Below are positions 2,995 to 23,891 of a DNA stretch of 64,000 nt, piece after piece. The stretch lies in assembly GCA_028285405.1 (NCBI GenBank), contig JANQPH010000039.1, forward strand, positions 1 through 64,000. The letters are read 5' to 3'. Each line of letters opens with the position of its first letter. The first letter of the stretch is position 1. This DNA is from Thermoleophilia bacterium (GTDB lineage: Bacteria; Actinomycetota; Thermoleophilia; Miltoncostaeales; Miltoncostaeaceae). The position numbers and the translations under genes are program-made. Below the pieces are notes generated by a model that saw only the letters and a program-made list of their open reading frames with translations, was not told the origin of the DNA and ran no database searches.

Positions 2995-4983
2995 TCAGGG
3001 GGGCGGCAGCGGAATGGGATCGGAGTTCGTCGGGGTCGGCAGCGGGTCGGTGCCGCCACCACCGCCACCACCTCCGTCGTCATCACCCTCGTCGGTCGGC
3101 TCGCCCTCCTTGGTCGGCCCGACGCTGACGGTGAAGCGGACGGTGCTGCCCTGCTGGACCAGGGTCCCGCCCGGCGGGTCCTGGTCGATGACGACGCCGA
3201 TGGGCTGATCCGAGGACGCGCCCTCGCTGACCGGCGTGAGGCCGGCCCCCTGGATCGAGGCGCGGGCCGAGTCCCCGTCGCTTCCGACGACGCCTGGGAC
3301 CTCCACCTCTGGTTGGGCGATCGCGACGACGAGGCTGACCGCGTCGCCCTCCGGGATCTCGGTCCCGGGAGAGGGGCTCTGGCTCAGCACCGTGCCCGGC
3401 GCGACACGATCGTCTCCCTGGCTCGTGACGGCACCGACCGACAGGCCCGCGGACGTGATCTCCGACTCGGCCGAGCTCTGCGACTGGTTGAGGACGTCCG
3501 GCACGGTCACCAGATCCCGGCCGCTCGAGACGGTCAGCCGGACCTCGCTGCCTTCGGGCGCGTCCGAGCCACCTCGCGGGCTCTGGCTGATGACCAGTCC
3601 CTCATCGACCTCGTCGCTCGGTTCTCGCTCCACGGCCACGGTGAAGCCTCGTCGCTCGAGCGTCGCACGGGCATCGTCCAGCTCCTGGTCGGTGACGTCC
3701 GGGACCGCAACGGTCTCGGGCCCGGCGCTCACCAGCAGCACCACCTCGCTGCCGGCATCGACGCGCTCACCCCCCGCGGGATTCGTGTCGACCACGGTTC
3801 CCGCCGGTTGTGTGTCGTCCTGAACGTCCTGTCTGCTCGTCGACAGGTCGGCCGCCTGCATCTCCTGAATCGCATCCTCGACCTGGAGGCCGACGACGTT
3901 CGGGACGCTGACCTGGTCGCCTCCGCCGTCGCCACCGCCGAAGATCAGGGCGCCGGCGACTCCCGCGAGCGCGACGATCGCGATGATCGCCAGTGCGGCG
4001 ATCCATCGTCGCCTGCGGATCGTCGATCGATCGTCGGGCGGGGGCGGCGTGGTCGCTGCCTGGGTGGCCGCGGTGGCCTGGTCGATCTTGCTCGTCGCCG
4101 CCGTCGCGCCGGCGGCGCCCGCCGCCGCGAGCACGCCGGTCGGAGCGGTGCCCGCCAGCTGTCGGCGGACCTCGAGCAGGTCCCGCGCCATCTCCTCGGC
4201 GTCCGTGAACCGGTCCTCGGGGCGCTTCTCGAGCGCGACGAGCACGACGTCCTCGAGCTCCTCCGGAATCCCGGAGGCGTAGACGCTCGGGTTCACCGGG
4301 GGCTCGTTCACCTGCTTCATCGCGACCGACACCGCGCGCTCGCCGTCGAACGGCAGCCGCCCCGTGAGCAGCTCGTACAGCACGATCCCCGCCGCGTAGA
4401 GGTCGCTGCGCGCCGTCACCTCGTCGCCGCGCGCCTGCTCGGGGGAGAGGTACTGGGCGGTGCCGATCACCGAGCCGGCCTCGGTCATGCCCGACTGCTC
4501 ACCGGCGCGGGCGATCCCGAAGTCCGTCACCTTCAGGCGACCGTCCTCGCCGACCATCACGTTCTGCGGCTTGACGTCCCGGTGCACGATCCCGCGCCGG
4601 TGGGCGGCGGCCAGAGCGCCGAGCAGCTGGAGCGTGTCGTCGATGGCCTCGAGCGGCGGCAGCGGCGCTCGCTCGCGCACGATCTCCTTGAGATCGGGCC
4701 CCGAGATGTACTCCATGACGATGTAGTAGGTGCCGTCGGTCTCGCCGCGGTCATAGACGGCCACGATGTTCGGGTGGCTGAGCGCCGCGGCCGCCGAGGC
4801 CTCGCGGCGGAATCGCTCGACGAAGGCCGGATCCGACGCGTACCTCTCGTCGAGGATCTTCACGGCCACGTCCCGGTCGAGCATCCGGTCGCGTGCCAGG
4901 TAGACGGTCGCCATTCCGCCCGAGCCGAGGCGCCCGCTGATCTCGTAGCGGCCGCCGATCATCGTGCCGGGTCGGATGTTCAC
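2995..4983 (-). CDS. pknB: PASTA-domain Ser/Thr protein kinase PknB
   Basis: Membrane-spanning kinase of 662 residues that senses muropeptides or lipid II and phosphorylates division and wall proteins. The N-terminal kinase domain (about 10-275) shows the glycine loop GSGGMATVY, the VAVK lysine, HRDVKPQN and DFG. One transmembrane helix (about 335-355) precedes four PASTA repeats, each with the V-P-N/D-V...G/S..P..G pattern. The C-terminus is a Gly/Asp-rich then Pro-rich tail. The GTG start overlaps the PBP stop by four bases. It is the last kinase of the conserved fha-pstP-rodA-pbpA-pknB order. Confidence 0.95.
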   Translation of the reverse strand: MNIRPGTMIGGRYEISGRLGSGGMATVYLARDRMLDRDVAVKILDERYASDPAFVERFRREASAAAALSHPNIVAVYDRGETDGTYYIVMEYISGPDLKEIVRERAPLPPLEAIDDTLQLLGALAAAHRRGIVHRDVKPQNVMVGEDGRLKVTDFGIARAGEQSGMTEAGSVIGTAQYLSPEQARGDEVTARSDLYAAGIVLYELLTGRLPFDGERAVSVAMKQVNEPPVNPSVYASGIPEELEDVVLVALEKRPEDRFTDAEEMARDLLEVRRQLAGTAPTGVLAAAGAAGATAATSKIDQATAATQAATTPPPPDDRSTIRRRRWIAALAIIAIVALAGVAGALIFGGGDGGGDQVSVPNVVGLQVEDAIQEMQAADLSTSRQDVQDDTQPAGTVVDTNPAGGERVDAGSEVVLLVSAGPETVAVPDVTDQELDDARATLERRGFTVAVEREPSDEVDEGLVISQSPRGGSDAPEGSEVRLTVSSGRDLVTVPDVLNQSQSSAESEITSAGLSVGAVTSQGDDRVAPGTVLSQSPSPGTEIPEGDAVSLVVAIAQPEVEVPGVVGSDGDSARASIQGAGLTPVSEGASSDQPIGVVIDQDPPGGTLVQQGSTVRFTVSVGPTKEGEPTDEGDDDGGGGGGGGTDPLPTPTNSDPIPLPPP

Positions 4984-6425
4984 GGCCCGCTCCCCGCGCC
5001 GACCTCGAGTGCGGTCTCCATCACCGATCGAGCGACCGGCGCGGCGATCTCCCCGCCGGTCTGTGGGGTGTCCTCGATCACGACCGCCACCGCGACCTGG
5101 GGGTTGTCAGCGGGAGCGAAGCCGATGAACCAGGCCTCGTTGGTGCCGGGGGCTCCGGTCTCGGCCGTGCCGGTCTTGCCGGCGACCCGCACGTTCGGAA
5201 TGGCGGCGGCGGTTCCGGTGCCCGACTCCACGACCTGCTCCATCATCTCGGTGAGCTCCTGTGCCACGGCCGGGGACGCCGGCTTGCCGATCTCGACCGG
5301 GTCGAGCTCCCGGACCACGCTGCCGCCGCGGTCGAGCGCTCGGCGACCGATGTGCGGGGCCATGACCGTACCGTCGTTGGCGACTCCGGCCGCGACCATC
5401 GCCATCTGCAGCGGCGTCGCCTCCAGGCGCTCCTGGCCGATCGCGAGGCGAGCCGTGTCGGCGCCCTGCTGGTCTGCGGCCAGCAGCTGACCCTGATTGT
5501 CGTAGCGCCCGCTCGGGACCACCTCGCTCTCGGGTAGGTCGATCGGGGGCCGCTCGCCGAAGCCGTAGGCCTTCATGGTCGCGGCGAGGCGGGGGCCGAG
5601 GGCGTCGCCGATGCGCGCAAACGTCGTGTTGATCGAATCCTGGAGCGCTCGGGCGAGGGTGTGGTTGCCGAAGGTCCGGCCGCCGAAGTTTCGGATCGGC
5701 TGTCCGTTCACAACGTACCGACCGTTGTCGTCGAAGCGCGAGCCCGGGCTGTAGAGGCCGCTCTCGAGCGCCGCCGTCGCCGTCACGACCTTGAAGGAGG
5801 ATCCGGGCGGGTAGCGCCCCTGCGTCGCGCGGTTCAGCAGCGGCGCCCCGGGCTGGTCGGCGATCTGCGCGAAGCCGGTCCGGACGTCCTGCAGGTTGAA
5901 CGTCGGCGAGGAGGCCATCGCCAGGACGCCCCCGGTCGAGGGATCGAGCGCCACGACCGCTCCGCGTCGGTCCCCGAGGGCCGACTGGGCGACCTCTTGG
6001 ACCCGCGTGTCGAGGTGGGTCTCGACGGTCGCGCCGCGCTTCTCGCGCAGGTTCAGCCGCTGCAGCAGGGGCTGCGTGCCGTAGCTGCCCGCGAGCCATC
6101 GGTTCCAGCTCGCCTCGATGCCGGTCTTACCCTGCTCGGGCGAGGAGTAGCCGATGGTCTGGGCGGCGAGGCTGCCCTGCGGATAGACGCGCTCGTACAC
6201 GCGCTGCCCGCGCACCCTGACCGCCCTGCTGGCGGCGAGGACCTTGCCGTCCGCGCTTTGGATCTGACCCCGGTCGACGAGCCGATCGCGCTGCAGGGCC
6301 TGTGGGTTGTCGGCGTCGTCGTTCAGGTCGGGCGCGGCGACGACCTGCCAGTAGCCGAGCATCAGCATCAGCCCGACGAAGCCGGCGGCCATGGTGAGGT
6401 AGAGGCGGCGCAGCGAGGTGTTCAC
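4980..6425 (-). CDS. pbpA: Class B penicillin-binding protein (PbpA/FtsI-like transpeptidase)
   Basis: Peptidoglycan transpeptidase anchored by one N-terminal helix (about 8-28), working with RodA/FtsW. The 481-residue length fits actinobacterial PbpA. The active-site motifs are all present: the SxxK serine in PPGSSFKVV, SxN as DSINT and KTG as AGKTGTAE. The GTG start at 6425 overlaps the rodA stop (GTGA). The same frame stays open upstream, but that part is only the shadow of rodA. Beta-lactam target by family. Confidence 0.94.
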   Translation of the reverse strand: MNTSLRRLYLTMAAGFVGLMLMLGYWQVVAAPDLNDDADNPQALQRDRLVDRGQIQSADGKVLAASRAVRVRGQRVYERVYPQGSLAAQTIGYSSPEQGKTGIEASWNRWLAGSYGTQPLLQRLNLREKRGATVETHLDTRVQEVAQSALGDRRGAVVALDPSTGGVLAMASSPTFNLQDVRTGFAQIADQPGAPLLNRATQGRYPPGSSFKVVTATAALESGLYSPGSRFDDNGRYVVNGQPIRNFGGRTFGNHTLARALQDSINTTFARIGDALGPRLAATMKAYGFGERPPIDLPESEVVPSGRYDNQGQLLAADQQGADTARLAIGQERLEATPLQMAMVAAGVANDGTVMAPHIGRRALDRGGSVVRELDPVEIGKPASPAVAQELTEMMEQVVESGTGTAAAIPNVRVAGKTGTAETGAPGTNEAWFIGFAPADNPQVAVAVVIEDTPQTGGEIAAPVARSVMETALEVGAGSGP

Positions 6426-7744
6426 GCCGGCTCCTCCGCGGCGCGCTTGGCCTCGAGGCGGCTCGCTCGCGAACGGTGGCTCACCAGCAGCAGGATCGCG
6501 ATCAAGCCGAAGTTCGTGACCACGCTCGACCCGCCGTAGCTCATGAACGGCAGGGTCACGCCGGTCAGCGGGATCAGGCGGATCACGCCCCCGATGATCA
6601 GGAAGGCCTGGATGCCGAGCACGGCGGTCAGCCCGCCCGCCAGGAGCTTGCTGTACCCGTCGTTGGCCGCGCCGGCGATCGCGAAGCCGCGCTGCACGAG
6701 CAGGAGGAAGCACAGGATGATCCCGATCGCCCCGACGTAGCCGAGCTCGGCGGCGACCGCCGAGAAGATGAAGTCCGTCTGCAGCGCCGGGATCACCGTC
6801 GATCCGTCCGGGTTGACGAGGAACGCGCGCCCGAGGCCCGGGCCGACCAGGCCGCCGTCAGCCAGCGCGTAGAGGGACTGGACCAGCTGGAAGCCGAGCC
6901 CCTGGGCGTCCCCGAACGGGTCGATCCAGGCGTCGACCCGATCCTGGATGCGCGGGATCGCCGCCCACACCGCCGCGGCGCCCACCGCGATCGCGGCGAG
7001 GCCGGCGACCACGTAGCTCGTGCGCCCGGTCGCCAGGTAGAGCATCGCCAGGAACACGCCGAAGAACAGGATCGCCGTGCCGAAGTCGTTCAGCACCGCG
7101 ATCAGGAGCAGCGAGATGGCCAGGAAGACCAGCGCCGGCCCCAGGGCGCTCATCGGGGGCACGGGCACGCCCGCGACTCTGCTCGTCGGGATCGCGAGCA
7201 GCTCGCGTTTGTCGGCCAGATACCCAGCGAGGAACATCACGACCAGCACCTTGGCGAGCTCGGTCGGCTGGATCGTCTGCCCCTGGCCGATCTCGATCCA
7301 CAGGCGCGACCCGTTGATGGTCGTGCCGAAGATCATCGTGAGGATGAGGATCAGGACCGCCGCGGCGCCGAGCGAGTACCGGTACCGCTGCAGCACGTGG
7401 TGATCCGGCAGGAACAGCAGGACGAGGATGAAGACGGCGCCGCCGACGACGAACCAGATGGTCTGGTCGCGCGCGAGCTCGGGGCTGATCCGGTGCAGCT
7501 CGACGAGCCCGATCGCCGCCAGCACGCCCACGAGCGGCAGCACGTAGGGATCGGCGTACGCCGCTTTCAGCCGCAGCGTCACGTGCATGGCGATGAACAC
7601 CCCGAGCACGGCCACCGCGCCGGGCAGCGCGCCGAAGTCCAGCTCGTCGGCGTTCGCGGTCGCCACGGCCACCGCGCCGAGGATGCCGAGGACGGCGCTC
7701 ACGGCGAGGAAGCCGAGCTCCTGCGTTCTGATCGAGAGATTCAC
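6422..7744 (-). CDS. rodA: SEDS peptidoglycan polymerase RodA/FtsW
   Basis: Polytopic SEDS protein (440 residues, about 11-12 hydrophobic segments) that polymerises lipid II with its partner PBP. Recognisable stretches are NGSRLWIEI, QPTELAKV, the DFGTAILFFGVF region and the C-terminal LPFMSYGGSS signature. The gene overlaps the PP2C gene upstream and pbpA downstream by four bases each, consistent with translational coupling of polymerase and transpeptidase. Confidence 0.94.
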   Translation of the reverse strand: MNLSIRTQELGFLAVSAVLGILGAVAVATANADELDFGALPGAVAVLGVFIAMHVTLRLKAAYADPYVLPLVGVLAAIGLVELHRISPELARDQTIWFVVGGAVFILVLLFLPDHHVLQRYRYSLGAAAVLILILTMIFGTTINGSRLWIEIGQGQTIQPTELAKVLVVMFLAGYLADKRELLAIPTSRVAGVPVPPMSALGPALVFLAISLLLIAVLNDFGTAILFFGVFLAMLYLATGRTSYVVAGLAAIAVGAAAVWAAIPRIQDRVDAWIDPFGDAQGLGFQLVQSLYALADGGLVGPGLGRAFLVNPDGSTVIPALQTDFIFSAVAAELGYVGAIGIILCFLLLVQRGFAIAGAANDGYSKLLAGGLTAVLGIQAFLIIGGVIRLIPLTGVTLPFMSYGGSSVVTNFGLIAILLLVSHRSRASRLEAKRAAEEPA

Positions 7745-14332: not shown

Positions 14333-14884
14333 GTGGACGACCTGTCGCTCATCGTCGCCGTGGCCGCGTGCGTGGTCGCCGTCGTCGCTCTCGGGGTGGC
14401 GGTGTGGCTGTGGGTCGAGCTGCGACGGCTGCGCCACGATCAGCGGGTGCTGCTGCCCGAGGGGGCCTCGGACGACCTGGCCGGCCGACAGGCCGACCTC
14501 ACCCGCTCGGTGTCCAAGATCGAGACCGGTCTCGGGCAGCTCGAGGCCCTCGTCCAGACGACCGCTCGCAGCACCGACGCCGAGCTCGCCACCGCGCTGC
14601 GCTTTCGCGGGCTCGTCCGGTACGACGCGTATGCGGAGATGGGCGGACGCCAGTCCTGGTCGATCGCGTTGCTCGACGAGCACGGCACCGGCGCCGTGAT
14701 TAGCTGTCTGCATGCCAGGGATCACGCGCGCATCTACCTCAAAGAGGTGGTCGAGGGAGCGGCGAACCAGCGCCTCTCTCCCGAGGAGCAGCGCTCGATC
14801 GCCGGTGCGCTCGGGCCATCGCCCGCGACCGCGGAGGCGGGGGAGGTGAGCGAGGCCGGCGAGCAGGCGCTCGACGGCCGGTGA
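14333..14884 (+). CDS. DUF4446 family membrane protein
   Basis: 183-residue protein with one N-terminal transmembrane helix (about 4-27), a coiled-coil-prone stretch (about 30-80) and the DUF4446 core FRGLVRYDAY.EMGGRQSWSIALLD, ending near LSPEEQ. The function of the family is unknown. GTG start. Its stop overlaps the pheA start (GTGA), so the two are coupled. Confidence 0.85.
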   Translation: MDDLSLIVAVAACVVAVVALGVAVWLWVELRRLRHDQRVLLPEGASDDLAGRQADLTRSVSKIETGLGQLEALVQTTARSTDAELATALRFRGLVRYDAYAEMGGRQSWSIALLDEHGTGAVISCLHARDHARIYLKEVVEGAANQRLSPEEQRSIAGALGPSPATAEAGEVSEAGEQALDGR

Positions 14885-15732
14885 GGATCGGATACCTCGG
14901 GCCGGCCGGGACGTACTCCGAGGAGGCGCTCCAGGTGCTCACCGCCGGCCGCGACGAGGTCGAGGCGGTGCCGCTCGCGAGCGTCCCCGACTGCTTCGAG
15001 CGGGTGGCCACCGGGGAGCTCCCGCAGGTGCTCGTCCCGAGCGAGAACTCGATCGAGGGCCCGGTCAACCAGACGCTCGACCTCCTGGCCGCGGCGGATG
15101 GCGCGCTGCTCATCGTGGCCGAGATCGCCCATTCGATCCGCCACCACCTGGTCGCGCGGGGTCCGGTGGAGCTCGAGCGCGTCGAGCGCGTCATCTCCCA
15201 CCCCCAGGCGACCGCTCAGTGCGCCGGCTTCCTCCATTCCCGCATGCCCCGGGCGGAGGTGCGCGCGGCAGTGTCGACGGCCGATGCCGTTCGGAGCCTG
15301 GCCGCCGACAACGGCGTTGCCGCCGCGATCGGGAGCCTGCGTGCCGCCGACATCTACGGCGCCGAGATCTTGGCCGAGGACATCGCCGACGAGGACTCCA
15401 ACACCACCCGCTTCGCGCTGATCGGGCGGGAGGCCCCGCCGGCGGTCGGCCCGGGCCGCTTTCGCACCTCGATCGTGTGCGCGATCAGGCGCGACCGTCC
15501 GGGGGCGCTGCTCGCCATCCTGCAGGAGCTCGCGCTGCGCGGTGTCAACCTCTCGTACCTGCAGAGCCGGCCCACCAAGCAGGGACTCGGCAAGTACCGC
15601 TTCTTCATGGATCTCGAGGGGAGCCGGGAGCGGGACCTGGCGGTCGCCGCCGCGATCACGGCCATCGAGGAGCAGGACGTCGCCGAGGTGACGTTCCTCG
15701 GCTCCTACCCGGAGGCCGGGCCGGCCGACTAG
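14881..15732 (+). CDS. pheA: Prephenate dehydratase
   Basis: Converts prephenate to phenylpyruvate in phenylalanine synthesis. At 283 residues it has the monofunctional length. The catalytic domain shows GPAGTYSEEA, VPSENSIEG, SHPQATAQC and the TRF motif (NTTRF) near residue 178. A C-terminal ACT domain (about 195-275) with GALLAILQELALRGVNL should bind phenylalanine for feedback control. GTG start overlapping the DUF4446 stop. Confidence 0.95.
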   Translation: MRIGYLGPAGTYSEEALQVLTAGRDEVEAVPLASVPDCFERVATGELPQVLVPSENSIEGPVNQTLDLLAAADGALLIVAEIAHSIRHHLVARGPVELERVERVISHPQATAQCAGFLHSRMPRAEVRAAVSTADAVRSLAADNGVAAAIGSLRAADIYGAEILAEDIADEDSNTTRFALIGREAPPAVGPGRFRTSIVCAIRRDRPGALLAILQELALRGVNLSYLQSRPTKQGLGKYRFFMDLEGSRERDLAVAAAITAIEEQDVAEVTFLGSYPEAGPAD

Positions 15733-16449: not shown

Positions 16450-16522
16450 GCCCTCGTAGCTCAGTGGATAGAGCACAGGTTTCCTAAACCTGGTGTCGGA
16501 GGTTCGATTCCTCCCGGGGGCA
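16450..16522 (+). tRNA. tRNA-Arg (anticodon CCT)
   Basis: Full cloverleaf. Acceptor GCCCTCG pairs with CGGGGGC (one G-T), the anticodon stem CAGGT/ACCTG encloses TTCCTAA with anticodon CCT at 16483-16485, and the T arm is GGAGG-TTCGATT-CCTCC with discriminator A. No encoded CCA. It reads AGG. Its 3' part is the attachment site of the island that follows. Confidence 0.96.
16481..16521 (+). repeat. attL: direct repeat within tRNA-Arg
   Basis: 41 bp from the anticodon loop to the end of the acceptor stem, identical to 20229-20269. The flanking bases differ (T against A before, A against G after), which fixes the repeat length. Confidence 0.92.
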
Positions 16523-16733
16523 TCACCTTGGACAAGGCGATCACGAGAGGGATTTCGCCGGGTGGCGAGGGCCGAAGTGGTCGCTGGATACTGCCAGGGA
16601 TACTGTGAGTTCCCGGGTCGCCGAGCACGGGCCTAGGATCGGCTTCGATGGCTGAGACAAGGCAGGACCTACCGCCCGTCCCCGAGACGATCGACGCGCT
16701 GCTGACCCACACGGCCCCCAGCCTCGGGCGTCT

Positions 16734-16989
16734 GTGGGCCGCGGATGGTGCGCGCAAGACCCGAAGCCGCTGACGCTGATGCGTTGGCTGGTGCGGCTGG
16801 TCACACCGCCCAGGGGGCGTGACCCTCGACCCGTTCTTGGGCTCGGGGACGACGGCGCTGGCTGCGCGCCGAGAGGGCCTTCGGTGCATCGGGATCGAGT
16901 GCGACCTCGGGCACCTCGAGATCGCTTGTCCGTCGGCTCGGCAGCGGCCCGACACCCTGTTCGGCGCTGCGCGAGGTGGCGGGCTCGTG
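16734..16989 (+). pseudogene. DNA methyltransferase remnant (frameshifted)
   Basis: From 16764 one frame reads KPLTLMRWLVRLVTPP, typical of the region before motif I in N4/N6 DNA methyltransferases. From 16816 another frame reads VTLDPFLGSGTTALAARREG then GIECDLGHLEIA, which is motif I (DPFxGSGTT) and the helix after it. The frames join if one base is removed from the cAGGGGGc run at 16811-16817. The catalytic DPPY-type region and target-recognition domain are absent. A 41-codon open frame at 16648-16773 upstream is too short to call. Confidence 0.7.
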
Positions 16990-17047
16990 ATCCGGGTCCA
17001 GTACCGCGGGGCAACCCAACCCGTATCGAGGATTCGTGAGCTGCCCT

Positions 17048-17260
17048 CTACCCCTCGCGCCGAGGGTCTGCCCCAGCCGGCAGCCAGTAGATCGCTGCGA
17101 TCGCAGCGATGTTGACCGTGACGTTCGCGCCGTGCGAGTCGACGGTCATGAAGCCAGGCGTAGCGGGCTCGCCCAGGCGGTGCGTGATCTCAGCATGGCT
17201 CAGGGTCGGGTAGAGCTCGGTCCCGTCCACCAGGACGATCTTCGCTGTGATCATCGCCAT
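17048..17260 (-). CDS. Small hypothetical protein
   Basis: 70 residues, not recognised. The sequence looks structured (ITAKIVLVDGTELYPTLSH, VTVNIAAIAAIYWL), an alternation suggesting a small beta-sheet domain. ATG 17260 follows the stop of the upstream gene with no gap, so the two form a unit. Such short ORFs are common in actinobacterial phage and plasmid-like elements. Confidence 0.5.
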   Translation of the reverse strand: MAMITAKIVLVDGTELYPTLSHAEITHRLGEPATPGFMTVDSHGANVTVNIAAIAAIYWLPAGADPRREG

Positions 17261-17613: not shown

Positions 17614-17883
17614 GTGACAGCCATGCGACTGCGAACCGAGTACGACCAGGCTCACGACATCGTCTACGTCCACCTCGTTGATCCGCCAGCGCCCCGAGTC
17701 GCTCGGTCGATCGACCTCGACCGATGTCGGCGTCTAGACGAGGACGCCGGGGGGACAACCGTTGGTCTCGAGATCGAGTACCCATCGCGGGGTGTTGACC
17801 TGACAGGCGTGCCGAACTCGGACTCGGTTGCCGAGGCCCTTGCCGCGCTCGGGCTCCGAGTGACGCGCTCGACTTGTGGGTAG
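17614..17883 (+). CDS. DUF2283-like small protein
   Basis: 89 residues (81 if the ATG at 17638 is used; the GTG and first ATG are close together). The beginning, MRLRTEYDQAHDIVYVHLVD, and the later GTTVGLEIEYPSRGVDL fit the DUF2283 pattern (a short beta protein, often beside toxin-antitoxin or mobile genes). Function unknown. Its last codons overlap the integrase fragment. Confidence 0.55.
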   Translation: MTAMRLRTEYDQAHDIVYVHLVDPPAPRVARSIDLDRCRRLDEDAGGTTVGLEIEYPSRGVDLTGVPNSDSVAEALAALGLRVTRSTCG

Positions 17884-18290
17884 CTAACACCTCAGTCGCC
17901 CGAGATGAGCAGGAGAGCTCCTGGGGCGAGCGTCGGATCCCGGTGCCGTCGGACCTGCTGAGCGAGCTCCAGCTCTCGCGCGACACGGCGATGTACCCGG
18001 CTGATCGCGACTTCGTCTTCGCGACGCAGGCGGGGACGCCACTCACCGAAAGCAACGCGACGCGCCGGATCATCAAGCCGGCCGCCAAGGCAGCTGGTGT
18101 GCCCTGGGCCGCGTGGCACGACCTCCGCCGCGCCGCTGCATCGCGCTGGGCGCGAGAGGGGCACGGTCCACGGGCGATGCAGCGCCTTCTCGGCCACTCG
18201 GACCCCAACCTCAGCCTCGGCGTCTACACCTGGGTACGGGACGACGACCTCCCGAGCGGCGACACCCTCGCGCTCCGCTCAGCTGGGTAG
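17874..18290 (+). pseudogene. Tyrosine recombinase (integrase), C-terminal fragment
   Basis: The open frame keeps the distal catalytic motifs: the HDLRR box (HxxR) near residue 82, LLGHSD with the second histidine, and the nucleophile Tyr in LGVYTWV, followed by the DDDLP tail seen in actinobacterial element integrases. The N-terminal arm-binding and core-binding domains and the first catalytic Arg are missing. A full integrase is about 350-400 residues; this has about 120 homologous ones. It must have catalysed the original insertion. Confidence 0.75.
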
Positions 18291-18405
18291 GGCGGCGATC
18301 GTTAGCGTCCTCAAGCGCGTCCCTCACCGGGACGGTTATCCACAAGTCGTCCGCCTGGCGGATGAGGATGCGCAGTGAGAGCCTTGCATAGCGCACCCTG
18401 CTATG

Positions 18406-18419
18406 CGAACGTATGTTCG
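18406..18419. promoter_or_regulatory. Putative LexA (SOS) operator
   Basis: CGAACGTATGTTCG is a perfect 5+5 palindrome with a 4-bp spacer. It matches the Gram-positive/actinobacterial SOS box (CGAAC-N4-GTTCG), and the right flank A also fits. It ends 15 bp before the GTG of the DprA-like gene. A second inverted repeat, GCATAG...CTATGC (18386-18391/18401-18406), abuts it. Confidence 0.65.
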
Positions 18420-18434
18420 ATCGAAGGCACCCCC

Positions 18435-19316
18435 GTGAGCAGCCCAGAGACGATCGCCACGCTTGCCCTAATGGAGAGTCGCGCCCTGCCGTGGAACCGG
18501 CTTGCCGGTGCGATAGAGGAGGAGGGCAGCGCGATCCGACTCCTCAAGAGCCTGGACACGAGCGCACAGGGGCGTCTGTTTGAGGACAGCGGCTCCGCCG
18601 CCTCCATCACCGAGTTCGAGGCGCGGGTCGAGGAGTGGGGACGAGAGGGCATCGCGGTCGTTGGGATCCTCGACCCCGGTTACCCGGGAAATCTCCGGAT
18701 GGTCCACGACCGCCCCCCCGTACTCTTTGTGCGTGGCACGTTGGCCGACCCCGACGAGCGTTCCGTCGCGGTCGTTGGGACTCGCCGACCGACGGAGCGG
18801 GGTCTCGAGCAGGCGCGAAGTTTCGCGCGCGACCTAGTGGATGCCGGCTATGTCGTTGTGAGTGGCCTCGCTGAGGGCATCGACACTGCAAGTCACCTCG
18901 CGGCCCTGGAGGCGCGTGGCCGTACGATCGCCGTGGTCGGCACTGGTCTGCGACAGGCATTCCCGAAGACGAATGCAGGACTGCAGGACCGCCTTGCGCG
19001 GGACCACGCTGTGCTCTCGCAGTTCCTCCCGGACCAGGGTCCTAGGCGCTGGACGTTTCCTCAGCGGAACGCGGTCATGTCTGGGTTCGCGAGGGCAACC
19101 GTGGTTGTTGAGGCATCAGGGACGAGTGGCGCCAGGATGCAGGCTCGCCTCGCTCTTGAGCACGGGCGACCCGTGTTCCTGCTCCGCTCCCTGATGCGGT
19201 TTAGTTGGGCCCGCGACTACGCGGAGCGACCGGGCGTCTACGTGGTGGACTCCGGTCATGAGGTGATCGTCGACCTAGAGCGTCTCTACAGCGAGGAGCT
19301 TTCTCTCGTCGCGTAG
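18435..19316 (+). CDS. DprA/Smf-like protein (ShosA-like candidate)
   Basis: 293 residues with a DprA Rossmann core. An N-terminal helical domain (about 1-75) precedes VAVVGTRRPTERG (about 112), VVSGLAEGIDTASHLAA (about 142), TIAVVGTG, FPQRNAVMSG and VVVEASGTSGARMQA. The C-terminal winged helix of competence DprA is absent. GTG 18435 is chosen because it follows the LexA-like box and starts the N-terminal domain; an in-frame GTG at 18375 would make the operator coding. The phosphoribosyltransferase gene follows after 31 bp. DprA plus PRTase in a mobile island recalls ShosTA rather than natural transformation. Pairing-based function is inference. Confidence 0.82.
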   Translation: MSSPETIATLALMESRALPWNRLAGAIEEEGSAIRLLKSLDTSAQGRLFEDSGSAASITEFEARVEEWGREGIAVVGILDPGYPGNLRMVHDRPPVLFVRGTLADPDERSVAVVGTRRPTERGLEQARSFARDLVDAGYVVVSGLAEGIDTASHLAALEARGRTIAVVGTGLRQAFPKTNAGLQDRLARDHAVLSQFLPDQGPRRWTFPQRNAVMSGFARATVVVEASGTSGARMQARLALEHGRPVFLLRSLMRFSWARDYAERPGVYVVDSGHEVIVDLERLYSEELSLVA

Positions 19317-19347
19317 CCCGCGTTCAGGAGCCTCGTAGACTCGGCTC

Positions 19348-20103
19348 GTGGCGACGCTTACCGTCGAAGAGGCCAGCGCGACGTACGCCCGCGCGATGAG
19401 AAACGTCAGGCGCCCTGGCCTCGGCATCTGCACGATCTGCAAGACCTTTGTCGACCAGAAGTACGAGCGGTGTCTTCGCTGCAACGGTCAGCGCGCCGAG
19501 CTCGACGCGGTGCTCCCAATCACCTATAGCGAGCATCTCGGTCAGGTCCACCTCGCGCTGCGCCGGTACAAGGACGGCGGCCTGGCTGAGCAGCGATACG
19601 CCGCGCCGCGGCTTAACGGAATCCTCTGGCGGTTCCTAAAGGCCCACGAGGGCTGCCTAGCCCGCGCCGTCGGCAGCTCTGGCTTCGAGATCGTCTGCGC
19701 TGTGCCTTCCAGCACGCCGAGCCGTGACAACGAGCGGGATCGGCTTCGGCGGATCTTGCAGGCCTGTGGCCCGGTCAAGGAGCGCTTCGAGCGGCTGCTG
19801 CTGCCCACGGGGGACGTCCCGGAAGGTCGGGCCTATGACCAACGTCGATACGAGGCTGGTCGCTCACTCGCCGGGGAGGACGTGCTGCTTGTCGACGACA
19901 CCTGGGCGGGGGGCGGGCACGCGCAATCCGCCGCCACGGCCCTAAAGGCTGCAGGGGCAGGGTCAGTCGGTCTCGTGGTGATCGGGCGGCACGTTCAACC
20001 TGACTGGCGCGTCGGGGATGACGGAGAGACCTGTGCAGCGCTACTTGACCAGCTCCCGAAGGTCTTCGACTGGGACGACTGTGCTTTGCACGGAGACGCG
20101 TAG
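19348..20103 (+). CDS. Zinc-ribbon phosphoribosyltransferase, ComF-like (ShosT-like candidate)
   Basis: 251 residues. An N-terminal CxxC...CxxC zinc ribbon (CTIC and CLRC, about 27-45) is followed by a ComF-like section (LRRYKDGG) and a type I PRTase fold with the PRPP-binding loop VLLVDDTWAGGGHAQSAA (about 178-195). It lies 31 bp after the DprA-like gene on the same strand and is followed by a hairpin, so the two form an operon. ComF proteins belong to DNA uptake, but ShosTA-type systems also pair a PRTase effector with a DprA homologue. I favour the latter because of the island setting. Confidence 0.8.
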   Translation: MATLTVEEASATYARAMRNVRRPGLGICTICKTFVDQKYERCLRCNGQRAELDAVLPITYSEHLGQVHLALRRYKDGGLAEQRYAAPRLNGILWRFLKAHEGCLARAVGSSGFEIVCAVPSSTPSRDNERDRLRRILQACGPVKERFERLLLPTGDVPEGRAYDQRRYEAGRSLAGEDVLLVDDTWAGGGHAQSAATALKAAGAGSVGLVVIGRHVQPDWRVGDDGETCAALLDQLPKVFDWDDCALHGDA

Positions 20104-20117
20104 GCGCCCGTGGAGGT

Positions 20118-20136
20118 CGCGACGGATACCGTCGCG
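20118..20136 (+). terminator. Hairpin after the DprA-PRTase operon
   Basis: A perfect 8-bp stem cgcgacgg/ccgtcgcg with loop ata begins 15 bp after the phosphoribosyltransferase stop. No T-run. Confidence 0.5.
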
Positions 20137-20228
20137 GATACTGCGAGGGGTGAGAGCCAGTGGACCCGACTGCCGGAGAACCCGCTTGGCGTAGCGGTCA
20201 GTACACGCCAGTCAGACCCTGGGCGGCA

Positions 20229-20269
20229 TTCCTAAACCTGGTGTCGGAGGTTCGATTCCTCCCGGGGGC
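20229..20269 (+). repeat. attR: duplicated tRNA-Arg 3' end
   Basis: Exact 41-bp copy of 16481-16521. It lacks the 5' half of the tRNA, so it is not a functional tRNA and marks the right end of the island. Confidence 0.92.
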
Positions 20270-20341
20270 GTTGCAGGGGAATAGCTGTCGGCGCTTGCGA
20301 GGCTCAGTCACACATCGAGATCAGAGCGGATCTGCGGTGGC

Positions 20342-21130
20342 ATGACGTCCCCTTCGACACCAACGTGGAACGTCACGATTCGCGGTCAGAAGAGGGACAT
20401 CGCTCGCCTCCTGGGACCCGGGCCAGGAAGTGGGCTCAAGTTCGTCCTCAGCGATGCACACAAGGCCAGATTCGAGCTCACCGATCCCGGCGGCGCGACT
20501 CGGGACGACGCGCGCGCAGCCGCCAGGGCTCAGATTGAAGACCGCGTTGAAGACCTCAACGGACTCGGCAAGCTCAGATGGGGTCGAACCTTCGAAGGTG
20601 TTGAGATCGAAGAAGTGCGCGTTGTCGACCCGGACTGTCGTGACGAAATCGTCGGCTTCTTGGGGGTTGCGGTCGACTTCATGACCTGGCGGGAAATGGA
20701 GCGCATGCGCATCCGGCTCGGGCGGCCCCCGCGACCCGAGCCGGATGGTCTGTCTGACATCGAAGGCCTGGATCTTCCTACGGTCGAGCGCCTTCTGGAC
20801 AACGAGCCAAGTGTTCGCCGCGTTCTGCACCTCATTCGCCTTGCGCATAGCCCCCCGGGCAACGAGCTTCTCGACTGGGCGCTTGCCTATGCGGCCTGGG
20901 AGGCCATCCAGCACGACGCTCGGTCGCGAGGCTGGGACGGCGCCCAGTTGGGCTGGTGGACGAGGCGGGAGCTCCGCGCTTTCAGGGGGACGGCGAACAG
21001 CCCCGAAGCGCTCGGCTCGAGAGCACGTCATGGTGAACCGAGAGGGCTACCCGCTTCGAGAATGAACGACTCGGAGGCGAGCCATTTCGTTCGGAAAGTC
21101 GCCGCGCGATGGATCAAGGAGCTTCTCTAG
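20342..21130 (+). CDS. Hypothetical protein next to the island
   Basis: 262 residues, not recognised. No signal peptide or membrane helix is visible. The first part alternates beta-like and charged stretches (WNVTIRGQKRDIARLLG, GLKFVLSDAHKARFELTD). The middle is helical with LPTVERLLDNEPSVRRVLHLI, and the end is basic. Codon use is less GC-extreme than in the core genes. It starts 72 bp beyond attR, so it may be older accessory DNA at the same hotspot. ATG start. Confidence 0.65.
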   Translation: MTSPSTPTWNVTIRGQKRDIARLLGPGPGSGLKFVLSDAHKARFELTDPGGATRDDARAAARAQIEDRVEDLNGLGKLRWGRTFEGVEIEEVRVVDPDCRDEIVGFLGVAVDFMTWREMERMRIRLGRPPRPEPDGLSDIEGLDLPTVERLLDNEPSVRRVLHLIRLAHSPPGNELLDWALAYAAWEAIQHDARSRGWDGAQLGWWTRRELRAFRGTANSPEALGSRARHGEPRGLPASRMNDSEASHFVRKVAARWIKELL

Positions 21131-21267
21131 AGGCGACGTCGACCGACTTCACGGCCCGGGCACCTGGGAATCGACTTGGCCTGCAGCCCAAGCCCCCTGC
21201 GACGTAAGTGTGCGACTTCGCAGCGACCTGCGACCCGAGTGGGGGCGAGCTTGGTCGGCGCCAAGAC

Positions 21268-21738
21268 TCAGCCGGTGCTGGTCCCGTCGTCGGAGCAGTG
21301 ATCGTCCTGCAGGGTCACGATCTCGGTGTCGACGGCCTTCGCGGAATCCTCGATCGCCGTCACCTCCGCGTCGGTCGGCGGGTCGGAGATCGCCGTGATC
21401 GCCTTCTGGAGTGCGGCGAGCTCGGTGCCGAGCGCTTCGGTCGAGATCTGAGCCCCCTGGGCGGCGAGGCCGAGGTTGTTGGCGTTCCCGCCGAGCCGTG
21501 AGTTGAGCGTCGCGAGATCCTCGCTGGTCGTGGTCGCCGGGTCGATCTCGGCGAGTTCCTGGATCGGGACCTCGAGGCGGTCGAGCTCGCTGCAGAACTC
21601 GGCGACCGCAGCGTCGTCGGCCCCGCCGCTCGTCGTGGACGCGGCGTCGTTGCTGTCGCCCCCGCAGGCGGCGGCGCCGAGCGCCAGCGCACCGGCGATG
21701 GCGACGGCCGCAAAGGTCCTCGTGAGCCGGATTCTCAC
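21268..21738 (-). CDS. Small lipoprotein, unknown function
   Basis: 156 residues. An N-terminal Arg-rich lipoprotein signal with a hydrophobic core ends in the lipobox LGAAAC (Cys at about 25), then a Ser/Thr/Asp linker. The rest is predicted alpha-helical with two further Cys (FCSELDRL and DDHCSDDG) that could form a disulfide. Lies alone between the unknown gene and a hairpin. Confidence 0.75.
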   Translation of the reverse strand: MRIRLTRTFAAVAIAGALALGAAACGGDSNDAASTTSGGADDAAVAEFCSELDRLEVPIQELAEIDPATTTSEDLATLNSRLGGNANNLGLAAQGAQISTEALGTELAALQKAITAISDPPTDAEVTAIEDSAKAVDTEIVTLQDDHCSDDGTSTG

Positions 21739-21827
21739 GCCGGCATCCTACCGTCGCTCCCGCCCAGGTCAGCGCATGTTTCAGCCGCCGCCCGGTCGCT
21801 GTGCCGGTGGCCGAGGGCCCGAGCGAC

Positions 21828-21858
21828 GCTCAGCTCCGGGGGTGCCCCGGAGCTGAGC
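21828..21858 (-). terminator. Hairpin terminator
   Basis: A perfect 14-bp stem, gctcagctccgggg paired with ccccggagctgagc, with loop gtg. It lies 13 bp beyond the stop of the minus-strand lipoprotein gene at 21871. Confidence 0.75.
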
Positions 21859-21870
21859 CGCCGTCGTGTC

Positions 21871-22455
21871 TCAGGCCGCGCTCGCGCGGATCGTGACGTC
21901 GCCGACCTCGATGCCCTCCTCGAAGAGCACGACGCCGAACGTCCGGTTCAGGATCACTGCAGCCTCTGGGACGAGGGTCGTCGTCACACCCTCGAGCAGG
22001 ATGATGTCGCCGTCCGAGGAGCGAGCGAAGTCATCCAGATTGACCGCGAGCAGCCGCAGCTGGTCGCCGCCAGCCGTGGCCGTCAGCGTGTCGTTGGTGG
22101 TGTCGATGACGAAGTCGGTGACCGCGACCTCCTCGCCACCTGCGCTGAAGCGCAGCCCGCCCGCGTGCTCGATCGTGCCGACGAGCGTCTCGGAGTCGAT
22201 CGTGCCGCCGGTGATCGGGAACGTGATGCCGTCGTCCGATGCGGAGGCCGGCGCGATCGGCTCGACGGTCACGTCGTTGCGCTCGAGCAGCGCCGCCAGC
22301 GTCGAGTCCAGGCTGAGCGTCGTCTCCACGCCGGTGAGCGTGATCTCTCCGCCGGTGTCGTCGCCATCGTCGTCGTCATCCCCACACGCGGCGACCACGA
22401 GCGCCAGGGCGACGATCAGCCCAAGCGCCAGTGTCAGTCTGAGTATCCGGCTCAC
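21871..22455 (-). CDS. Lipoprotein with HtaA-like beta-rich domain
   Basis: 194 residues. Signal peptide with lipobox VVAAC (Cys about 24) followed by an Asp run. The mature part is beta-rich and contains the pattern ITFPITGGTIDSETLVGTI then GGLRFSAGGEEVAVTDFVID, similar to repeats in HtaA-type surface proteins and related uncharacterised actinobacterial lipoproteins. I see no haem-ligand evidence, so only the fold resemblance is suggested. GTG start. The 229 bp upstream (22456-22684) show no gene. Confidence 0.7.
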   Translation of the reverse strand: MSRILRLTLALGLIVALALVVAACGDDDDDGDDTGGEITLTGVETTLSLDSTLAALLERNDVTVEPIAPASASDDGITFPITGGTIDSETLVGTIEHAGGLRFSAGGEEVAVTDFVIDTTNDTLTATAGGDQLRLLAVNLDDFARSSDGDIILLEGVTTTLVPEAAVILNRTFGVVLFEEGIEVGDVTIRASAA

Positions 22456-22684
22456 GCCGTCACCCCCCGGTCGATTTGGGCGACGACGTTATCCGATCCG
22501 TAACAAATCCGGACGAGGGTGCGGTGCGTCAGTCCCGTGCCGGCCGGATCGGTGGCATTGCGATCAACTCGGCGATCTCACCCCATCACCGCGGGAGCCG
22601 GGCGCTGCCGCGAGCCGGCCAGGAGCGACCGGAGGCGACCAGCCCCGCGGTCCCGTGGCCCGTGCTCACCCGCCGGGGCGAGCG

Positions 22685-22885
22685 TCAGCGGTTGCGGGAG
22701 GCCTCGCGCCGGAGCGCGTCTTCGAAATAGGAGATGACATCGGCCGGCACCGGCCCCTCGGGCGGCTCGAGATCCATCTCGGCGAGCCGGAGGGCGGGGC
22801 GCTGCCGGCGCTGGAACGGAGCGAGCTGCGGTCGAGCCACGCGCTCGGTGTCCCAGTCGGCGAAGTCGAGGGCTTCTGTGCTCAT
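22685..22885 (-). CDS. Small hypothetical protein
   Basis: 66 residues, ATG start, not recognised. Soluble, Arg/Glu-rich, with a probable C-terminal helix (PADVISYFEDALRREASR). The overlapping plus-strand frames are less protein-like. Moderate doubt because of its shortness. Confidence 0.45.
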   Translation of the reverse strand: MSTEALDFADWDTERVARPQLAPFQRRQRPALRLAEMDLEPPEGPVPADVISYFEDALRREASRNR

Positions 22886-22945
22886 GCCCTGAAGATTCGC
22901 CGGGACGCGCCGATCGCCTGCCTGCTCGCCCGGACCGATTCGGCG

Positions 22946-23272
22946 CTAGGCCTTCACCTCGGAGAAGACGTTGATGACGATGACGCCGGCGATGATGAGC
23001 CCGACGCCGACGACGGCCGCGGCGTCCAGCGACTGGTTGAAGACCAGCCAGCTGATCAGCACGATCAGCGCCGTTCCGACTCCGGCCCAGATCGCATAGG
23101 CGATCCCGAGCTCGAGCGAACGGATCGCCAGGGACAGGAAGTAGAAGGCGCACACGTACGCGGCGATCGACACCAGGGTCGGGACGAGGTTCTGAAAGCC
23201 GTTCGACTCCTTGAGGAACGACGTCCCGATCACCTCCAGGACGATGGCCATCCCCAGAAACAGCCAGTGCAT
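22946..23272 (-). CDS. SMR-family small multidrug/guanidinium exporter
   Basis: 108 residues with four transmembrane helices. The key membrane glutamate lies in the first helix (AIVLEVIGTSFLKES), and AIWAGVGTALIVLISW is the third-helix signature. Works as a dimer, proton-coupled. ATG 23272 begins exactly at the first helix; the upstream extension is a shadow. Substrate (quaternary ammonium or guanidinium) not determinable. Confidence 0.92.
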   Translation of the reverse strand: MHWLFLGMAIVLEVIGTSFLKESNGFQNLVPTLVSIAAYVCAFYFLSLAIRSLELGIAYAIWAGVGTALIVLISWLVFNQSLDAAAVVGVGLIIAGVIVINVFSEVKA

Positions 23273-23402
23273 CAGACCCCCTCGGGCGTTGGCGGTGCGC
23301 GCAGTCTCCCAGCACCCCCCGCCGACAACGCTCCGGGCCGAGACGACCGACCCGAGCGCTCGGTCGTCCGGGCCCGAGCTCACCCCCGCGTGGGCCCGAC
23401 GC

Positions 23403-23891
23403 TCACTCCCCGAGGCGGCTCAGCAGCTTTTGCAAGCGGCTCGGCTTGGGGCGGCTCCGTCGCGGCCGCATCCCGCTGGGCGCTCCGTCCTCGTCCCGCT
23501 TGGCGAACGGTGCGCGATCGCGGTGATAGACGGGCGCCTCGATGCCCCCTTCGGGCAGGCGGTGCTCGGCAGCGTCGAAGCGCCTGATCGTGACGTCGAT
23601 CTCTCCGGCGATGCACTCCTCGTTCAGGCACGCCAGCGTCACGGTCGCTCGGCCGGGCTGGTCCGCCCCGCTGAGGCGCGCCGAGCGCTCGTCACAGATC
23701 GGGCACGGCGCGAGCTCCCGCTCGGGCCAGGTGAGGAGGGGCACCTTCTCGTCGAACTCGGGCAGCGGGAGGCTGGTGCTCGCCTGCCACTCCTCTTTCC
23801 ACTCCATCAGCATGCGGTTGGGGCCAACCATCACCCGCTTGACCGCGTCGCGGTAGCCGTCGGCAGCTACGACGATCATCTCGTCGGCCAT
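23403..23891 (-). CDS. Hypothetical protein with zinc-ribbon-like cysteines
   Basis: 162 residues, not recognised. The N-terminus is a small alpha/beta region; CPIC near residue 63 and CLNEEC near 88 could bind one zinc. The C-terminus is strongly basic (MRPRRSRPKPSRLQKLL), suggesting nucleic-acid or membrane contact. ATG start preceded by GGAG. The 170 bp upstream have no gene. Confidence 0.6.
   Translation of the reverse strand: MADEMIVVAADGYRDAVKRVMVGPNRMLMEWKEEWQASTSLPLPEFDEKVPLLTWPERELAPCPICDERSARLSGADQPGRATVTLACLNEECIAGEIDVTIRRFDAAEHRLPEGGIEAPVYHRDRAPFAKRDEDGAPSGMRPRRSRPKPSRLQKLLSRLGE

What the first reader, a model, noticed from the sequence alone, without database searches (positions are those of the whole stretch)
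18435..20103. DprA-like + zinc-ribbon phosphoribosyltransferase pair as island cargo: candidate ShosTA-type defence system
The sequence shows two intact adjacent genes (31-bp gap, shared hairpin terminator) that are the only complete larger genes in a tRNA-bounded island. The first has the DprA Rossmann core without the C-terminal winged helix. The second has CxxC/CxxC and the PRPP loop VLLVDDTWAGGG. As I recall, ShosTA toxin-antitoxin/anti-phage systems pair a PRTase with a DprA homologue. The ComF-like zinc ribbon joined to the PRTase and the actinobacterial host may make this a distinct branch. Assignment to that family is inference.
Basis: partly seen in the sequence, partly recalled or inferred. 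Interest (0 to 1): 0.82.

Follow-up and report, generated by a model that had tools for sequence, protein, structure and literature searches.

The report
Zinc-ribbon ShosTA-type phage-defence pair
Two adjacent genes on a small, worn-out mobile element in an actinobacterium look like a toxin-antitoxin pair of a known phage-defence type (ShosTA), in a version whose toxin resembles the DNA-uptake protein ComF and recurs on actinobacterial chromosomes, plasmids and phages.

Summary
The observation mostly holds. Window 18435-19316 encodes a DprA-like protein without winged helix; 31 bp downstream, 19348-20103 encodes a 251-aa protein with a CxxC/CxxC ribbon and a phosphoribosyltransferase (PRTase) fold. 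They are the only intact larger genes of a 3.75-kb element bounded by tRNA-Arg and an exact 41-bp copy of its 3' end. The 'shared terminator' is not supported.
The ShosTA reading is supported. In a tree the DprA-like protein groups with DprA partners of phage, plasmid and chromosomal PRTase genes (99/96), away from the host's own DprA; the host also has its own ComF. Of 81 related PRTase loci, 63 have a DprA-like gene directly upstream and 5 a DprA-HAD fusion downstream; 77 carry the ribbon. The toxin model matches ComFC and E. coli ShosT about equally well.
ShosTA is known, and surveys already count it in Actinobacteria. I found no description of the ComF-like zinc-ribbon architecture in the papers I could search. 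Caveats: this copy's PRPP loop is aberrant (AG where relatives have mostly TT or TS), its integrase is truncated, 13 of 81 relatives lack a DprA partner, and function is inferred.

The parts
16450..16522 (+). tRNA-Arg (CCT), the integration target; holds the left attachment repeat
   Evidence: ARAGORN
16481..16521 (.). left copy of the 41-bp attachment repeat (3' end of the tRNA)
   Evidence: exact direct repeat
16586..16609 (+). left end repeat (paired GGATAC units), candidate integrase arm-type site; function inferred
   Evidence: 2 matches in the window, 0 in 100 shuffles (the pattern was derived from these two copies)
16819..17115 (+). remnant of a DNA methylase (C-terminal end only)
   Evidence: PF01555 1.4e-08, profile 185-219 of 221
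17614..17883 (+). small DUF2283 protein
   Evidence: PF10049 6.4e-05
17874..18290 (+). truncated tyrosine integrase (C-terminal catalytic part only)
   Evidence: PF00589 9.1e-11; aligns to 287-403 of a 418-residue integrase frame in a relative
18435..19316 (+). shosA-like gene: DprA-like protein without winged helix, presumed antitoxin and sensor
19348..20103 (+). shosT-like gene: ComF-like zinc-ribbon PRTase, presumed toxin
20124..20147 (+). right end repeat, counterpart of 16586-16609
20229..20269 (.). right copy of the 41-bp attachment repeat

Best explanation
The pair is a ShosTA-type toxin-antitoxin / abortive-infection module, cargo of a degenerate integrative element at tRNA-Arg. The DprA-like ShosA binds the PRTase ShosT and keeps it harmless. 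ShosA, built like a single-stranded-DNA-handling protein, notices abnormal ssDNA or SSB-DNA complexes of a replicating phage and lets ShosT act; ShosT then uses its PRPP site to poison nucleotide or DNA metabolism, and the cell stops growing before phages are made. In this branch the toxin has the architecture of the competence protein ComF (4-Cys ribbon plus PRTase), so the toxin-antitoxin contact may descend from the ComF-DprA contact. Shown here: gene pair, domain make-up, predicted fold, clade, mobile context, conserved pairing. Inferred: binding, sensing, toxicity, phage protection and descent from ComF. Whether this particular copy is active is open.
For: PADLOC ShosA 8.6e-66 and ShosT 9.4e-07 on adjacent genes. 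DprA tree of 31 rows: window in a 13-row clade (99/96) with 12 PRTase-paired DprAs (9 actinobacterial, plus Mana, Riah, phiOH2); the host's own DprA lies elsewhere. Pairing: 63 of 81 loci DprA-like directly upstream, 5 of 81 downstream, 13 none; 0 of 12 ComF control loci with a DprA-like gene, in shorter flanks of about 1.5 kb. ShosA and ShosT distances correlate over 52 sequences, r = 0.86, 0 of 2000 permutations as high (shared ancestry alone may contribute). Mobile carriers: Gordonia phages Vasanti and Bosnia, near or beside the integrase gene, and Mycobacterium and Streptomyces plasmids. ShosT model (pLDDT 95.6) matches ComFC 7p0h Z 10.2 and ShosT 8zvc Z 9.3. Foreign codon use: third-position GC 0.76 and 0.79 against 0.94 in the nearby host gene 14881-15732. 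Literature, seen as passages: an E. coli DprA-PRTase protects against T7 and lambda (PMC9122126); RqlH PRTase toxicity is curbed by DprA-like RqlI, which binds it (PMC4670107); ComFC binds ssDNA, and in two species interacts with DprA (PMC9005727).
Against: The ShosT profile match is weak and partial (26.9 bits), and the ShosA profile does not separate ShosA from DprA. The PRPP loop reads DDTWAGGG: T187 is present in 11 of 11 others of A1, which were not found through that motif, so this copy may be impaired. 13 of 81 related loci have no DprA-like gene, not even as a tblastn remnant in the fetched DNA, which a strict antitoxin requirement would not predict. The integrase is truncated. The paired DprAs of SopEphi and P2_4C9 fall outside the 99/96 clade, on long branches of unsure place. 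No toxicity, binding or phage data.
Confidence: 0.78

Rival explanations
1. Same gene family, but this copy is a relic: the PRPP loop changes abolished toxin activity, and the element is decaying in place.
For: Loop residues 187-188 are A-G where 11 of 11 others of A1 have T at 187 and 9 of 11 have T or S at 188; the nearest relatives L087 and L088 have TS. Integrase and methylase are fragments. In genome G204 the ShosA partner is intact while ShosT ends before the PRPP loop, so toxin loss occurs.
Against: Both ORFs are full length without stops; the acidic pair D183-D184, T185, G189 and the four ribbon cysteines are kept. PRTase loops vary between families (recalled).
Confidence: 0.3
2. The pair stabilises or defends mobile elements (post-segregational killing, exclusion of rivals) and phage defence is at most a by-product.
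For: Found on phages and plasmids; a survey passage says ShosTA in Actinobacteria tends to be plasmid-encoded (PMC10482375).
Against: An E. coli relative gave protection against T7 and lambda (PMC9122126). Only 2 of 81 loci had an integrase-like ORF within the fetched flanks, in a limited test with three query integrases. The roles do not exclude each other.
Confidence: 0.2
3. The zinc-ribbon PRTase is not a ShosT descendant but a separate recruitment of ComF beside a ShosA-type DprA; the resemblance to E. coli ShosT is convergent.
For: comF is the NCBIfam model matched by most members (64 of 77, best 2.7e-10); profile alignment to ComF covers 175 columns (E 1.7e-16), to proteobacterial ShosT only 43 (1e-6) (the latter profile has 3 sequences). 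In the PRTase tree Mana, Riah and SopEphi fall on the ComF side.
Against: ShosT PDLC03962 is matched by 70 of 77; fold scores for ComFC and ShosT are tied (10.2 and 9.3); P2_4C9 ShosT falls inside the zinc-ribbon group, on a long branch; HAD domains occur on either partner.
Confidence: 0.35
4. Competence or housekeeping ComF-DprA pair acting in DNA uptake or recombination.
For: Both proteins belong to the broad DprA and ComF-like superfamilies.
Against: The host has its own ComF-like gene (C14) and winged-helix DprA (C4); the pair is patchy (0 of 9 same-family genomes listed), foreign in codon use and on an att-bounded element; trees separate both proteins from the chromosomal copies.
Confidence: 0.03

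Closest known systems
ShosTA of E. coli / P2-like phages (PDB 8zva, 8zvb-8zvd, 9vzo, 9w2p, 9w2q; PADLOC PDLC02997 + PDLC03012)
   Same: DprA-like protein without a Pfam winged helix plus PRTase partner; similar PRTase fold (Z 9.3 to 8zvc); ShosA fold match 8zva, TM 0.76.
   Different: The ShosT of phage P2_4C9, which matches the solved ShosT over its whole length (977 bits), is 424 aa with an N-terminal HAD-like domain (PF00702, 2.9e-4, under the Pfam cut-off) and no ribbon; the window ShosT is 251 aa with a 4-Cys ribbon and no HAD match.
Short proteobacterial ShosTA (PADLOC PDLC03961 + PDLC03962; phages Mana, Riah)
   Same: Gene order and size; DprA partners in the same 99/96 clade.
   Different: Their ShosT scores 141 and 151 bits with PDLC03962 over nearly full length and Mana's lacks CxxC (Riah's was not caught by that script's loop pattern, its aligned letters show no CxxC); window ShosT 26.9 bits over residues 100-218.
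ComFC / ComF (Helicobacter pylori 7p0h; TIGR00201)
   Same: 4-Cys ribbon plus PRTase domain; best structural match (Z 10.2, rmsd 3.7 over 174 residues).
   Different: Separate clade in the PRTase tree; no TIGR00201 match for the window protein at E 0.01; 0 of 12 ComF loci examined had a DprA-like gene nearby.
RqlHI / PsyrTA
   Same: PRTase toxicity curbed by a DprA-like partner (PMC4670107 passages); PADLOC PsyrA also matches ShosA (9.7e-33).
   Different: RqlH carries a RecQ-like helicase domain; window ShosT is far too short for one, and its partner shows no C-terminal DNA-binding domain.

Membership tests
ShosTA (broad: DprA-like antitoxin + PRTase toxin) | DprA-like gene adjacent to a PRTase gene, same strand | tested here: met
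   conserved upstream in 63 of 81 loci
ShosTA (broad: DprA-like antitoxin + PRTase toxin) | antitoxin groups with PRTase-paired DprAs, not with chromosomal DprA | tested here: met
   99/96 clade; SopEphi and P2_4C9 outside it on long branches
ShosTA (broad: DprA-like antitoxin + PRTase toxin) | profile match of the toxin to ShosT | tested here: inconclusive
   PDLC03962 9.4e-07, 26.9 bits, part of the protein; 70 of 77 A2 members match; PADLOC's own cut-offs not available here
ShosTA (broad: DprA-like antitoxin + PRTase toxin) | PRTase toxic alone, neutralised by partner | not testable with these tools
   bench only
ShosTA (broad: DprA-like antitoxin + PRTase toxin) | phage protection | not testable with these tools
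   bench only
ShosTA, E. coli HAD-PRTase subtype (PDLC03012/PDLC02997) | N-terminal HAD-like domain on ShosT | tested here: not met
   window ShosT has a 4-Cys ribbon and no HAD match; the P2_4C9 protein has a HAD-like match. Not filed in this subtype.
Competence ComF + DprA | DprA winged helix and FPxRNR motif | tested here: not met
   no PF17782; FPQRNA in the window; R at that place in 0 of the 49 A3 rows (of 55) where FPxRN was found, against 7 of 7 chromosomal DprAs where it was found
Competence ComF + DprA | ComF family score | tested here: not met
   no TIGR00201 match at E 0.01 for the window protein; the host's ComF-like gene on C14 reaches 83.7 bits, itself below the family cut-off
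RqlHI / PsyrTA | helicase domain fused to the PRTase | tested here: not met
   251 aa, ribbon + PRTase only

The most novel reading that the evidence does not exclude
Zinc-ribbon ShosTA is the competence partnership ComF-DprA turned into an immune switch: a ComF-type PRTase became a suicide effector, held by a DprA without winged helix, with the ancestral ComF-DprA contact and ssDNA handling reused as latch and trigger. HAD domains seen on the toxin in E. coli and on the antitoxin in some actinobacteria would be a third, exchangeable module of one machine.
Probability: 0.35. Interest if true: 0.7.

Novelty: new variant of a known kind. Interest (0 to 1): 0.48.

Why it matters
PRTase toxins paired with DprA homologues have solved structures, but in the papers I could search I found no text on how the trigger is sensed or what is modified. 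A branch with the whole ComF architecture links the system to natural transformation, where ComFC binds ssDNA and can interact with DprA, and gives testable predictions (same interface, ssDNA or SSB trigger, role of the ribbon). It also names many actinobacterial carriers, with culturable test objects in two Gordonia phages.

Tried and rejected
Single-protein scans of viral contigs and genome contigs with the window ShosT gave no relatives, probably because the patterns were taken from its own divergent letters; the alignment A1 succeeded.

PADLOC ShosA as proof was rejected: the same model scores the host's chromosomal DprA at 183.5 bits. Structural similarity of ShosA was rejected as a discriminator: DprA structures rank with ShosA.

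Empty-site comparison: the tRNA-Arg is kept in relatives, but the right flank (20270-23600) found only three short stretches of 32-51 bp in the seven fetched regions and the 262-aa ORF at 20342 has no relative in 40 other genomes, so an unoccupied site could not be shown.

Conservation of D183, D184, T185 and T187 in A2 is biased, as the scan pattern itself required DDT[WF]T; I rely on A1 (11 of 11 others) instead.

Rows dropped or not fetched: of 81 loci, 4 without the ribbon motif (L095, L107, L124, L148) and L092 were left out of A2 (window + 76); only ShosA ORFs of 270-355 aa went into A3 (54 + window); 52 sequences present in both went into the correlation. The genome scan kept the best 80 of 103 confirmed stretches. 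Of 36 phage records with a ShosA match I fetched 8 by that search plus Vasanti by its PRTase; of 4 plasmid records 3. The DprA tree left out three weak PF02481 fragments (L081, L083, L084). The PRTase tree used 34 of 77 A2 rows and 11 of 14 ComF rows; L012 was not recovered as ComF. The ComF control loci have shorter flanks than the ShosT loci.

Paper searches for the ShosTA structure paper found no text; its mechanism is therefore not used. Fold matches below Z 8 were not interpreted. Distances between the conserved H100, C103 and C245 could not be measured, as no coordinates are given.

Full report
OBSERVATION. Window 18375-19316 is an open frame with in-frame GTG starts at 18375 and 18435; 18435 fits the length of near relatives. 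Its stop is followed after 31 bp by the GTG of a 251-codon frame, 19348-20103. The first protein matches DNA_processg_A (1.6e-58) and no DprA_WH. The second has C28-x2-C31 and C42-x2-C45 and the loop VLLVDDTWAGGG; Pribosyltran matches only at 0.0028, below the Pfam cut-off. The reported terminator is not supported: a 9-bp hairpin exists (z = -2.0), but the scan, which asks for a T-rich tail, finds no terminator, and the hairpin overlaps an end repeat of the element.

ELEMENT. tRNA-Arg(CCT) lies at 16450-16522. A 41-bp exact repeat of its 3' part occurs at 20229-20269, start-to-start 3748 bp. Just inside both ends lies a 24-bp sequence with two GGATAC units (16586-16609, 20124-20147); the pattern, which I derived from these two copies, occurs nowhere else in the window with up to 2 mismatches and in none of 100 shuffles. 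A same-family relative (L059) shows a full tRNA-Arg and a partial copy 12 kb apart with one integrase gene confirmed by Pfam and a second that matches the window's fragment by BLAST and, by eye, paired GTGGGAACA units near both copies, so these are candidate integrase arm sites. Partial tRNA copies also lie in L058, L060 and L062: the tRNA seems to be a repeated integration target in this family. The window's integrase is a C-terminal fragment, the methylase only the last 35 profile positions. Element GC is 0.674 against 0.715 for the window; third-position GC of the two genes is 0.758 and 0.785, of the nearby host gene 14881-15732 (prephenate-dehydratase-like by eye) 0.943.

ANTITOXIN SIDE. 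PADLOC gives ShosA 8.6e-66, but the same model gives 183.5 bits to the chromosomal DprA of the same genome, so a tree was needed. In 31 DprA-like proteins the window protein lies in a 13-row clade (99/96) made of PRTase-paired DprAs: 9 actinobacterial ones on chromosomes, plasmids and phages, plus Burkholderia phage Mana, Pseudomonas phage Riah and phage phiOH2. The chromosomal DprAs of its own family group apart (5 rows, 95/99). The paired DprAs of SopEphi and P2_4C9 fell elsewhere on long branches of unsure place. The clade lacks the second Arg of the FPxRNR motif: 0 of the 49 A3 rows (of 55) where FPxRN was found have R next, against 7 of 7 chromosomal DprAs where it was found; the script missed the motif in several rows of both kinds. 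The model (pLDDT 93.7) matches DprA and ShosA structures about equally well.

TOXIN SIDE. The PADLOC ShosT match is weak (9.4e-07, residues 100-218). Proteobacterial ShosT of Mana and Riah score 141 and 151 bits with the same model and show no CxxC. In A2 (window and 76 relatives) the four cysteines are invariant because the rows were chosen so; D184 and T185 were imposed by the scan pattern; K75 and G189 are invariant in A2, H100 and C103 hold in 76 of 77 and C245 in 75 of 77. In A1, found without those patterns, 11 of 12 have all four cysteines, and H100, C103 and C245 hold in 12 of 12, K75 in 10 of 12. Before the choice of rows, 77 of 81 loci had the ribbon motif. Family models: PDLC03962 ShosT 70 of 77, comF 64 of 77 (the window protein itself none). 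The AlphaFold2 model (pLDDT 95.6, pTM 0.92) best matches H. pylori ComFC 7p0h (Z 10.2, rmsd 3.7, 174 residues) and E. coli ShosT 8zvc and 8zvd (Z 9.3 and 9.2), tied, before PurF at 8.0; by Foldseek alone the one match under E 0.001 is ShosT 8zvb (8.1e-4). In a tree of 50 PRTases the 34 zinc-ribbon ShosT rows and P2_4C9 form one side (99/94), the 11 ComFs, Mana, Riah, SopEphi and phiOH2 the other; the window's sisters are two Solirubrobacterales MAGs (100/100). Whether zinc-ribbon ShosT is nearer to ComF or to other ShosT is not settled.

PAIRING AND SPREAD. A profile-led scan of genome contigs kept 79 loci (best 80 of 103 confirmed stretches) and of viral contigs 2. Of these 81, 63 have the DprA-like gene directly upstream on the same strand, 5 downstream, 13 none within the fetched flanks; tblastn finds no DprA remnant in these 13. 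None of 12 ComF loci has a DprA-like gene within about 1.5 kb. By record title 77 of the 79 genome loci are actinobacterial; L110 is labelled Acidobacteria and L124 only 'bacterium'. Named mobile carriers: Gordonia phages Vasanti and Bosnia, plasmids of Mycobacterium branderi, M. intracellulare and a Streptomyces. In a draw of 396 genomes of the phylum 12 matched, the host included; of the 11 others 4 have a DprA-like neighbour, 3 are unpaired ShosT-like PRTases (two with the full ribbon, the third short of one cysteine as read) and 4 have a ComF-like VDDV loop, one of them cut by its contig end. Nine same-family genomes listed in that draw had none. ShosA and ShosT distances correlate (r = 0.86, 52 sequences), as expected for a unit inherited together, though common descent alone may contribute.

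DOMAIN EXCHANGE. The P2_4C9 ShosT, which matches PDB 8zvb over its whole length, has an N-terminal HAD-like match (2.9e-4). In 5 of 81 loci (L085, L129, L137, L143, L145) a zinc-ribbon ShosT precedes a DprA-HAD fusion. A HAD domain thus sits on the toxin in one branch and on the antitoxin in another, which argues that the branches share a mechanism.

MECHANISM. From the literature, seen as passages: an E. coli DprA-PRTase pair protects against T7 and lambda, and the authors suggest DprA senses phage DNA and activates the PRTase (PMC9122126). RqlH toxicity needs its PRTase site (D663A largely removes it) and is curbed by DprA-like RqlI, which binds it (PMC4670107). ComFC binds ssDNA and PRPP, its ribbon matters for function, and ComFC of two species interacts with DprA (PMC9005727). 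ShosTA is named among systems linked to phage SSB or replication intermediates (PMC10732053). I therefore propose ShosA as inhibitor and ssDNA/SSB sensor and ShosT as PRPP-dependent suicide effector. Every functional step for the window pair is inference.

STATE OF THIS COPY. PRPP-loop residues 187-188 are A-G; 11 of 11 others in A1 have T187 and 9 of 11 have T or S at 188, and the nearest relatives have TS. With the broken integrase this raises the chance, which I put near 0.3, that the toxin is impaired. In G204 ShosA is intact while ShosT ends before the loop, showing that toxin-only loss happens.

NOVELTY. ShosTA is known and solved (PDB titles and names), and DefenseFinder surveys already report it in Actinobacteria, tending to plasmids (PMC10482375, passage and outline), and in actinobacterial prophages (PMC10023795, passage). 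I found no text on a ComF-like zinc-ribbon ShosT in searches, which cover open-licence papers only. Hence 'new variant of a known kind'.

Noticed in passing
L085, L129, L137, L143, L145: Five loci have a zinc-ribbon ShosT followed by a DprA-HAD fusion protein of 539-605 aa, a reversed gene order and a third domain.
   Followed up: partly
L157 6496-8258 and 3866-4678; L163 4656-6421 and 3770-4636: In two Nocardioides loci a second ShosT-like gene lies on the opposite strand beside the ShosA-ShosT pair: one antitoxin, two toxins in the fetched stretch.
   Followed up: no
L135 637-2502 and 2940-4672: A Frankia locus holds two ShosA-ShosT pairs on opposite strands.
   Followed up: no
L055 (G204) about 4943-6900: ShosA intact, ShosT frame ends before the PRPP loop: toxin lost, antitoxin kept.
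   Followed up: partly
L049, L050: Unpaired zinc-ribbon PRTase genes in the same chromosomal setting (beside an acyl-CoA dehydrogenase-like gene and transporter-like genes, read from the translations) in two genomes of one family: perhaps a domesticated form.
   Followed up: no
window ShosT residues 100, 103, 245 (A2): H100, C103 and a C-terminal Cys are nearly invariant in zinc-ribbon ShosT; possible second metal or active site.
   Followed up: no
L058, L059, L060, L062: Partial copies of the tRNA-Arg 3' end in relatives; L059 spans 12 kb between its copies and carries integrase genes: a repeated integration target.
   Followed up: partly
window 20342-21130: 262-aa ORF right of the element without Pfam, PADLOC or PHROG match at the thresholds used and without a relative in 40 related genomes.
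   Followed up: partly
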